NCBI GenBank assembly: GCA_027487685.1
Contig: JAIYDC010000075.1
Span: forward strand, 1 to 35,898
Direction: 5' to 3'
Source: Pseudomonadota bacterium
GTDB lineage: Bacteria > Bdellovibrionota > Bacteriovoracia > Bacteriovoracales > Bacteriovoracaceae
Length of the DNA: 35,898 nt
Below, piece by piece: positions 21,085-23,521 of this stretch. Position 1 is the stretch's first letter, and the number at the start of each line of letters is the position of its first letter. Both the position numbers and the translations under genes were made by a program. The notes beneath the pieces were generated by a model, which did no database searches, was not told the DNA's origin, and saw nothing but the letters and a program-made list of their open reading frames with translations.

Positions 21085-21295
21085 AAAATTTCCTTCGGGT
21101 GAGCGTTTTTAATAATCAGATTTATATCATCATGTTCGATGATCTGATAACCAGAATGGTGCTTAATCCTCCAAAACTTCTCTTCTGTCCCCAAGATTTC
21201 CAATGTCTATCTCTTTTCACAAATTCATTGAGCTAGATATTGGAGGAGATTTTCATGTATATTTAGATTAAAACAGCAAAGGGAAGTTGGTCATT

Positions 21296-23011
21296 ATGGT
21301 GATTACAAATCGAACAGCACAAGAAAATTCTTCTCCGGTTATGACGCTCGACGATCTTGCGGAATTGGTGAACTACTCAATGCTGGACACTCTCAACCCT
21401 GATCCAGAGGCGACAAGTAACGGAGTTGACCACAATTCACGGCAAGTTTTTTCAGGCCACTTCGTGCCAGTCAATCCTACGCCAATAGAAAACCCTGAGT
21501 ACGTCTTTCATAGTAAAAATCTTTTCAACGACCTTGGCTTCTCCGACCAGTTGGCCCAGTCTTTGGACTTCGTCCAAATGTTCTCTGGTGATCTCTCGCA
21601 TGTTCCGCTCCCCATGCGAAAGGTTGGCTGGGCCTGTGGATATGCACTTTCCATCTACGGCAGGGAGTACTATCAGCAGTGCCCCTTTCAAACTGGTAAT
21701 GGCTACGGTGATGGTCGTGCAGTTTCCGTGCTTGAGGCCGTCATCAAGGGCCAGCGGCGGGAAATGCAGCTCAAAGGTGGCGGTCCTACTCCTTACTGCC
21801 GAGGTGCTGACGGAAGGGCCGTTCTTCGTTCGAGTGTTCGGGAATTCTTGGCGCAAGAGCACATGCATGCCCTTGGGGTGCCAACGTCTCGCTCTTTGAG
21901 CTTATTTGTTTCGAAAACGGAGAAAGTTAATAGGCCGTGGTACTCACAAGGCTCGGTCTCACAGAATCCGGATGTTTTTATACCGGAACCTGTCGCCATC
22001 ACAACTAGAGTAGCATCATCTTTTATCCGGGTGGGCCAGCTTGAACTCTTCGGTCGCCGTGCCCGTAAGAATGAACACCCCGGAGCATTGGAAGAACTCG
22101 AAAAACTTGTTTTGCACCTCATTGATCGTGAGTACGCCGAGATCATTGATAAGAAACTACCCACCTCCGAGAAAGTCGTCTGCTTGGCCCGCGAGTTCAG
22201 GGGGCGACTCACGGCCTTGGTAGCGAACTGGATTCGCGTTGGCTATTGCCAGGGTAACTTTAACAGTGACAACTGTGCCGGCGGTGGTTTCACCCTCGAC
22301 TATGGACCTTTTGGATTCTGTGAGGCCTTTGATCCGCAGTACCAACCTTGGACTGGTGGCGGTCATCACTTTGCGTTTATGAACCAGCCAGTGGCTGCAG
22401 AGCGCAACTTCTATATGTTTTGTATAGCACTCAAGCCGTTACTGAGTTCCGATGAAGCCTCTCTGCGTCAGGTCGAGGAAATCCTAGATGGCTTTTCGAC
22501 AGTCATGGAAGAGCAAATGGAGAAGATGTGGGCCGCGAAACTTGGAACGGCCACTTATCAGAGGGAACTTGTGACGGAACTCGAGATGCTTATGGCGCAA
22601 ACGCCAGTCGATTACACTATTTTCTTCCGTGAGCTCTCCATGGTTCCGGATGATATTGAACCACTCAAGAAAAGCTTTTATAGTAAGTCCCCCGAAGCAA
22701 TGGAGACACGCTGGACAAACTGGCACTCGAAATGGAAAGCAATCCTCGATACAGCTCCCTGTGTCCCCCGAGAAGAGCTCTCAACGCAGATGAAACTGGT
22801 GAATCCTAAATACAGTTTGCGGGAGTGGTTGATCGTGCCGACGTATCAAGAAGCGGGCAAGGGAAATTATAATCTCATGAGAGAGTTGAATGAAGTTATG
22901 ACACGGCCCTATGCTGAGCAATCTGAGGAAATAGAGAAAAAGTATTATAGGCCCAAGCCGTCTGAGTTCTTTGGGATTGGGGGATTCTCCCATTTAAGTT
23001 GCTCGTCGTGA
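21296..23011 (+). CDS. selO: SelO-family protein adenylyltransferase
   Basis: The 571-residue product has the SelO pseudokinase-like core: [12 protein letters not shown] (near 137), [20 protein letters not shown] (about 158-177), RSSVREFL, and a later GNFNSDN plus [16 protein letters not shown] block corresponding to the family's G-x-M-N-x-D-N and D-Y-G-P-F-x-F elements. SelO transfers AMP from ATP to protein substrates and is linked to redox stress. The C-terminus ends in CSS, the position of the redox-active Cys or Sec in many family members. ATG 21296 is chosen over TTG 21287 because GGGAAG sits just upstream. It is followed by a terminator, so it is a single gene. Confidence 0.92.
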
Positions 23012-23044: not shown

Positions 23045-23074
23045 TATCCTATAAGAAATTGAAAAGGATCAGTC

Positions 23075-23521
23075 ATGGAAACTTATTGGCGTAAGTGTGG
23101 AAGCTGTAAGAAAGATATCAATTTCAACCAGATTTATCAGACCTGTAGTGTTTGTAAGGGAAAGTTCGCATTCTGTTCAGTTGACTGTTGGGATGAGCAC
23201 GTGCCGATCATGAATCATCAAAGTGCTTGGGCGGAGGAGAATCGTGCACCCTCCAAAACACTCTCGCCGGCCGATCAGCCTCAGCCTGTAAGACGTATCG
23301 TCAATTCTCCCTCGGCCTCTAGTTCGAAGAGTAGTCCCATGGATACAGAGATACTTATCGTCGCTTCAAAGCTCAAGCAGTATGTAAAAGATAAGCATGA
23401 CTTAAGTACTTCGGCCAATGTGATGGATGCTCTTTCACGTGAGGTCAGACGGATCACTGATCGAGCTGCTGAGAAAGCGATGGCCGAGGGACGTAAAACA
23501 TTGATGGATCGAGATTTCTGA
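23075..23521 (+). CDS. zinc-finger protein with C-terminal histone fold
   Basis: The 148-residue product has two parts. Residues 8-48 are a cross-brace zinc finger: C8-x2-C11, C24-x2-C27, C34-x3-C38, H42 and H48, with FCSVDCWDEHVP resembling MYND/HIT or ZZ fingers. A flexible Ser/Pro/Gln-rich linker runs to about 88. Residues 89-148 read as a histone fold: first helix ASKLKQYVKDK, long central helix (STSANVMDALSREVRRITDR, then AAEKAMAEG), then RKTLMDRDF, matching the R-K-T-x-x-x-x-D loop of archaeal and Bdellovibrio histones. The third helix is missing because the protein ends at RDF. Histones of this short kind are DNA-binding dimers in Bdellovibrio, and zinc-finger histones have been listed in surveys of prokaryotic histones. 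It is alone, between a terminator and a convergent membrane gene. It probably binds DNA or a chromatin partner; the finger's target is unknown. Confidence 0.8.
   Translation: METYWRKCGSCKKDINFNQIYQTCSVCKGKFAFCSVDCWDEHVPIMNHQSAWAEENRAPSKTLSPADQPQPVRRIVNSPSASSSKSSPMDTEILIVASKLKQYVKDKHDLSTSANVMDALSREVRRITDRAAEKAMAEGRKTLMDRDF

What the first reader, a model, noticed from the sequence alone, without database searches (positions are those of the whole stretch)
23075..23521. Zinc finger joined to a short histone fold
The C-terminal 60 residues carry the helix-loop-helix and R-K-T loop of histones and lack a third helix, while the first 48 residues form a two-zinc finger of MYND/HIT or ZZ style. Bacterial histones are known in Bdellovibrio, and zinc-finger histones have been noted in genome surveys, but no function is established for this architecture. 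The finger may recruit the histone dimer to a partner protein. It sits alone behind a terminator, so it should act on its own.
Basis: partly seen in the sequence, partly recalled or inferred. Interest (0 to 1): 0.75.

Follow-up and report, generated by a model that had tools for sequence, protein, structure and literature searches.

The report
Zinc-finger bacterial histone (ZZ-histone family)
This gene encodes a small bacterial histone with a two-zinc finger on its front end, a protein type already catalogued as "ZZ histones" but never tested; comparing about 370 related genomes shows that the finger is a separable module that related bacteria keep as a free protein or join to their histone.

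Summary
Window 23075-23521 encodes a 148-aa protein: a two-zinc finger (residues 1-59), a fast-evolving 31-aa linker with a conserved RRIV motif, and an alpha3-truncated histone fold (91-148). The histone part matches the crystallised Bdellovibrio histone HBb (E 7e-10 alone, 1e-16 as a family profile) and keeps its DNA-contact residues. All eight zinc ligands are invariant in 101 fingers across the phylum.

The architecture is not new. Schwab et al. 2024 named it "ZZ histone", and the B. bacteriovorus copy is almost certainly Bd3044. The finger, however, does not match the Pfam ZZ profile; its nearest, sub-threshold profiles are treble-clef fingers (VATC, FLZ, MYND).

New evidence comes from relatives. 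Some genomes carry the finger as a free protein beside a free histone. In two genera the finger-coding segment is present or absent between one histone gene's leader and its start codon. There the fused genes keep the histone's own ribosome site and ATG, so one gene could make both finger-histone and free histone. The window's own gene lacks that internal signal.

Most likely mechanism, inferred: an HBb-like dimer binds and bends DNA, and the finger holds a protein partner there.

The parts
23075..23521 (+). Finger-histone gene, 148 aa, ATG start, TGA stop
   Evidence: orthologues in 49 relatives and throughout the phylum
23062..23069 (+). AAAAGGAT ribosome-binding site of the gene
   Evidence: sequence; duplex energy -5.4 kcal/mol with the anti-SD (L003)
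23075..23251 (+). Two-zinc treble-clef finger, residues 1-59; ligands C8 C11 C34 C38 (C4 site) and C24 C27 H42 H48 (C2H2 site; pairing inferred from the cross-brace pattern)
   Evidence: all eight ligands invariant; Pfam scan
23252..23344 (+). Flexible linker, residues 60-90
   Evidence: fast-evolving, pN 0.304
23291..23302 (+). Conserved linker motif RRIV (residues 73-76), 'PRRIIV' in relatives
   Evidence: R/K-hydrophobic motif in 66 of 84 linkers vs 8.5 expected from shuffles
23345..23518 (+). Alpha3-truncated histone fold, residues 91-148
   Evidence: phmmer 6.8e-10 to HBb 8cmp; profile 1.1e-16
23492..23500 (+). RKT loop (residues 140-142); with R146/D147 it matches the HBb DNA-contact and RD-clamp residues
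   Evidence: mapping alignment onto HBb residues in PMC11317129
23021..23034 (+). Weak terminator-like hairpin between the SelO gene and the finger-histone gene
21287..23011 (+). Upstream neighbour, SelO-family protein adenylyltransferase; not conserved as a neighbour
   Evidence: Pfam SelO 2.8e-68; neighbourhood comparison

Best explanation
It is a bacterial zinc-finger histone, a member of the described ZZ-histone category and orthologue of Bdellovibrio Bd3044. Proposed working: (1) two chains pair through the histone fold (inferred from HBb); (2) the dimer grips the DNA backbone with K101, T112, S113, K141, T142 and R146 and bends it, as HBb does (residues shown conserved, activity inferred); (3) each chain carries on a flexible linker a two-zinc treble-clef finger that does not touch DNA but holds a protein partner, so the dimer tethers that partner to the nucleoid, with the RRIV linker motif as a possible second docking point (inferred); (4) in this genome it works beside a separate double histone, as a specialised form rather than as the only packaging protein (inferred).
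For: Histone part: HBb homology. HBb contacts K12, T23, S24, K52, T53, R57 and clamp R51/D58 (PMC11317129) map with offset +89 to K101, T112, S113, K141, T142, R146, R140, D147, and these columns are nearly invariant. FtF tetramer residues (R48, N52 in PMC11390915) correspond here to K134 and E138, so a dimer rather than a tetramer is expected. Finger: ligands invariant, net charge 7+/7-, which argues against a simple DNA clamp. Finger and histone are separable parts that recur together: a free finger plus a free histone in 14 of 14 such genomes tested outside genus g125, and fused or unfused forms within one genus. 168 of 174 finger-bearing genomes also have a histone, against 166 of 195 without finger. 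B. bacteriovorus expresses its ZZ histone weakly (PMC11390915), which suits a specialised role there.
Against: No partner was found: gene neighbours are not conserved. Six genomes of genus g125 carry a finger gene (72-83 aa where read as a short frame) with no detectable histone, so the finger can serve without one. In several genera (for example g4; G004, 99% complete, one histone match) the finger-histone is the only histone, so it is not always accessory. The co-occurrence figure is confounded by shared ancestry. No dimer or zinc-bound model could be made.
Confidence: 0.5

Rival explanations
1. The finger is a second nucleic-acid-binding module, so that the protein bridges two DNA segments or DNA and RNA instead of recruiting a protein.
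For: Treble-clef fingers can bind nucleic acids (general knowledge); free fingers carry basic tails ending in VILRR/K, and fingers outside the Bacteriovoracaceae have a basic N-x-x-R-T-G loop.
Against: The window finger is charge-neutral with an acidic WAEE stretch; that loop is shortened or absent in the window's own family.
Confidence: 0.2
2. It is simply the architectural histone of the cell with a decorative or regulatory (zinc- or redox-sensing) extension.
For: In several genera it is the sole histone. In genus g140 the finger is present or absent upstream of the same main histone gene.
Against: The window genome has another histone. Weak expression is reported in B. bacteriovorus (PMC11390915). 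The finger is about as conserved as the histone, more than a decoration would need.
Confidence: 0.2
3. The protein no longer acts on DNA: a histone-fold dimer used as a scaffold, as in TAF-type proteins.
For: Authors of the survey warn that some histone-fold proteins may have left genome organisation (PMC11390915).
Against: All HBb DNA-contact residues are retained and nearly invariant.
Confidence: 0.08

Closest known systems
ZZ histones (Schwab et al. 2024, PMC11390915), including the B. bacteriovorus ZZ histone, taken here to be Bd3044
   Same: N-terminal two-zinc finger (C4 plus C2H2), linker, C-terminal alpha3-truncated bacterial-dimer-like histone; found in the same phylum
   Different: The third ligand pair is CX3C in all 101 fingers here, whereas the paper lists C51/C53 (CXC) for Haliangium D0LYE7; no Pfam ZZ match here; in the window and L001 the second pair is CX2C instead of CX4C
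HBb / Bd0055, bacterial dimer histone (PMC11317129, PMC10627809; PDB 8cmp, 9ezz, 9f0e)
   Same: Histone fold, RKT loop, RD clamp and DNA-contact residues
   Different: HBb has no finger and is abundant and probably essential; in the histone tree HBb-type singlets form a supported branch apart from the window's clade
HLp and other face-to-face histones (PMC12701072; PDB 9qt0)
   Same: Alpha3-truncated histone fold
   Different: Tetramer residues not conserved; E 3.6e-4 only
MYND / FLZ / VATC / HIT treble-clef fingers (Pfam)
   Same: Treble clef with CX2C first pair and an FCSxxC-type knuckle
   Different: All matches below the Pfam cut-offs; homology not shown

Membership tests
ZZ histone category (PMC11390915) | N-terminal finger with a C4 and a C2H2 zinc site | tested here: met
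   eight ligands in matching order, invariant in 101 fingers; zinc binding itself not tested
ZZ histone category (PMC11390915) | C-terminal bacterial-dimer-like alpha3 histone | tested here: met
   HBb match 6.8e-10 / 1.1e-16
ZZ histone category (PMC11390915) | Finger structurally like eukaryotic ZZ domains (HERC2) | tested here: inconclusive
   full-length model pLDDT 46.7, too poor to compare
Pfam ZZ domain PF00569 | Profile score over the curated cut-off | tested here: not met
   0 of 24 fingers at E<=10; own-genome search does not hit the gene
Pfam zf-MYND / zf-HIT / zf-FLZ | Profile score over the curated cut-off | tested here: not met
   FLZ E 7.5e-4, 19.3 vs 23.4 bits; MYND best 0.0064, HIT 7.3
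Bacterial dimer histone (HBb type) | RKTxxxD motif and HBb DNA-contact residues | tested here: met
   RKTLMDRD at 140-147; contacts conserved
Bacterial dimer histone (HBb type) | Forms dimers that bend DNA | not testable with these tools
   no multimer prediction or bench assay
Face-to-face histone | R48 and N52 tetramer residues | tested here: not met
   K134 and E138 at the aligned positions (mapping inferred)

The most novel reading that the evidence does not exclude
The finger is a mobile targeting module for bacterial histones. Lineages keep it as a free protein or graft it in frame onto their main histone gene. Grafted genes that retain the histone's own ribosome site and start codon produce two histone forms from one gene, plain and finger-tagged, i.e. 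a bacterial histone-variant system.
Probability: 0.3. Interest if true: 0.75.

Novelty: new member of a known kind. Interest (0 to 1): 0.45.

Why it matters
Zinc-finger histones are among the least understood of the bacterial histone categories. The genomes give natural experiments (same genus with and without finger, finger free or fused) that make the finger's role testable, and they suggest that bacteria, like eukaryotes, may equip a basic histone with reader-type modules. The window's own protein is one ordinary orthologue of that family.

Tried and rejected
Conserved gene neighbourhood as a clue to function: none phylum-wide. SelO next to the gene: also near it in L047, L048, L050, L100, L120 but absent near the gene in the closest relative L001. 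Viral, plasmid or phage carriage: no match. AlphaFold on three-sequence alignments: poor for the whole protein, 73.8 pLDDT for the histone part but with helices 2 and 3 merged; Foldseek found nothing, which is no evidence against the fold. Deeper alignments were not sent to the structure tool because its rule admits only window sequences and loci from named tools. PDB profile search with the finger gave only chance hits. Internal start in the window gene itself: M89 exists but its upstream has no ribosome site (-2.4 kcal/mol), so rejected here.

Full report
What is there. The window lies on a 35,898-base contig of a 3.79 Mb genome of a Bacteriovoracaceae-type Bdellovibrionota (relatives). Window 23075-23521 is a clean 148-codon gene with an AAAAGGAT ribosome site. 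Residues 91-147 match the Bdellovibrio histone HBb (E 6.8e-10) and more weakly other bacterial histones; with a 30-sequence profile HBb rises to 1.1e-16. The classical Pfam histone model stays below its cut-off (E 0.01), as expected for an alpha3-truncated histone. The N-terminal part holds CX2C-X12-CX2C-X6-CX3C-X3-H-X5-H.

Conservation. In 49 relatives of the same order the eight ligands never vary, and W5, K30, FCSVxCW and P59 are nearly fixed. In 101 non-identical fingers across the phylum the ligands are at 100%. The linker evolves about five to eight times faster in protein-changing sites than the flanking domains, yet contains a short basic-hydrophobic motif, RRIV here and PRRIIV or KVRIV elsewhere, in 66 of 84 linkers against 8.5 expected from shuffles.

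DNA contacts. HBb contacts DNA through K12, T23, S24, A25, K52, T53 and R57 and stabilises its loop with R51-D58 (PMC11317129). The alignment places these at K101, T112, S113, A114, K141, T142, R146, R140 and D147, all retained. The two residues said to define face-to-face tetramers, R48 and N52 (PMC11390915), align with K134 and E138. So an HBb-like dimer is the expected state; this is inference, not measurement.

Is it known? Yes as a category. Schwab et al. 2024 describe "ZZ histones": N-terminal ZZ-type finger plus bacterial-dimer-like histone, weakly expressed in B. bacteriovorus (PMC11390915). Hocher et al. 2023 list Bd3044 as the longer, second histone (PMC10627809). Locus L084 comes from a 3,782,950-base single-contig genome, which I take to be HD100 from its length (own knowledge), with HBb at 49 kb; its 168-aa finger-histone is therefore almost certainly Bd3044. 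Window and L084 proteins share the same layout.

Is the finger a ZZ domain? By sequence, no. None of 24 diverse fingers matches Pfam ZZ at E<=10; VATC (13), FLZ (11), C1_2 (10), MYND (6), FCS (6) and HIT (1) do, all below cut-off. The FCSxxC knuckle and CX3C-X3-H-X5-H end resemble MYND/HIT/FLZ treble clefs. Structural similarity to ZZ, as claimed in the paper for a Haliangium member, could not be tested. The name should be read as a label.

The finger is a separable module. A finger-only profile finds a finger gene in 174 of 369 phylum genomes, nearly always one copy. Most of those read in full are finger-histones, but in family f26 and in f25 and f20 the finger ends in a basic tail with a V-I-L-R-R/K-like end and no histone (L097, L099-L101, L104, L105, L120, L121, L141-L143), and in others it is a bare 70-75 aa finger (L085, L087, L095, L096). 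The 14 such genomes tested outside genus g125 have a single separate histone gene. In f26 that singlet is of the ZZ-histone sort, not the HBb sort: the tree groups f26 singlets with fused domains of f22 and f26 while HBb-type singlets form their own supported branch (58 columns, so deep forks are unresolved). Six g125 genomes have a finger and no detectable histone.

Same locus with and without finger. In genus g168, G353 has a free histone (L127) and an unlinked free finger (L141), while G352 has only a fusion (L103). The fusion lies at the free-histone locus: leader, histone and downstream flank of L103 align with L127, whereas only the finger aligns with L141. In genus g140, G307, G311, G312 and G315 have a free histone (67-73 aa open frame) and no finger hit, while eight other genomes have fusions. 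The leader of the free gene in G311 aligns over 240 nt with the leader in front of the finger in G313 (score 203, shuffled maximum 29), and the histone keeps the same start and ribosome site in both (AAAGGAGCTAAAT-ATG versus AAAAGGAGCTAGAT-ATG). So the finger segment sits precisely between leader and histone start. The direction, gain or loss, is not proven; the retained ribosome site and the free finger elsewhere make gain more likely.

Possible two-product genes. In fused genes of f22, f26, f27 and f13 an in-frame ATG just before the histone is preceded by a ribosome-like site (about -4.9 to -9.1 kcal/mol), whereas internal ATGs in the window's family mostly show none. About 10% of all codon positions reach -5.0, and these genes are related, so this is suggestive only. 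The window gene has M89 before its histone but no ribosome site (-2.4).

Context. Neighbours are not conserved beyond close relatives. Upstream is a SelO-family gene, separated by a weak terminator-like hairpin; downstream is a convergent small ORF that looks like a membrane protein. No relatives appear in viral contigs, phages or plasmids.

Mechanism and confidence. Most likely the dimer binds and bends DNA as HBb does and the neutral, strongly conserved finger holds a protein partner; the second histone of this genome would do bulk work. DNA binding I hold at about 0.75, finger as protein adaptor at about 0.5. Which protein it holds is unknown. The finding is real and correctly read in outline, but its architecture was already catalogued; the module behaviour in relatives is, to my knowledge, not described in the papers I could search.

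Noticed in passing
L035 (own genome G000:C121:23329-23748): A 135-145 aa tandem double histone whose two halves are HBb-like and both keep RKT and the RD clamp; the known bacterial double histones (Thermus, Aquifex) are said to lack DNA-binding residues. All 26 genomes of the window's genus show at least two histone matches, and many other Bacteriovoracaceae genera show the same tandem pair.
   Followed up: partly
L098, L103, L106, L123, L145, L148, L166 and relatives: Fused finger-histone genes keep an internal ATG with a ribosome-like site just before the histone domain, suggesting that one gene makes both finger-histone and free histone.
   Followed up: partly
L073 (G084:C104): Finger and linker joined in frame to an RlmG-like methyltransferase (MTS domain), the histone missing; in L012, L013, L014 and L024 that methyltransferase gene lies downstream of the finger-histone, so a deletion or an assembly error may have joined them.
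   Followed up: partly
L095, L096 and other genus g125 genomes (G282-G287): A short stand-alone finger gene in genomes with no detectable histone at all.
   Followed up: no
L097, L099, L100, L101, L104, L105, L120, L121, L141-L143: Histone-free finger proteins share a C-terminal motif like V-I-L-R-R/K (strict form in 6 of 16 tails, 0.03 expected), possibly the counterpart of the RRIIV linker motif.
   Followed up: partly
g4 genomes such as G004 (L010): The finger-histone is the only histone detected in near-complete genomes, so it may be the sole histone of those cells.
   Followed up: no
G034:C7:4409-4846: This finger-histone copy contains an in-frame TAA, perhaps a decayed gene or a sequencing error.
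   Followed up: no
window 21287-23011: SelO-family protein adenylyltransferase gene directly upstream; SelO genes also lie within a few genes of the finger gene in L047, L048, L050, L100 and L120.
   Followed up: partly
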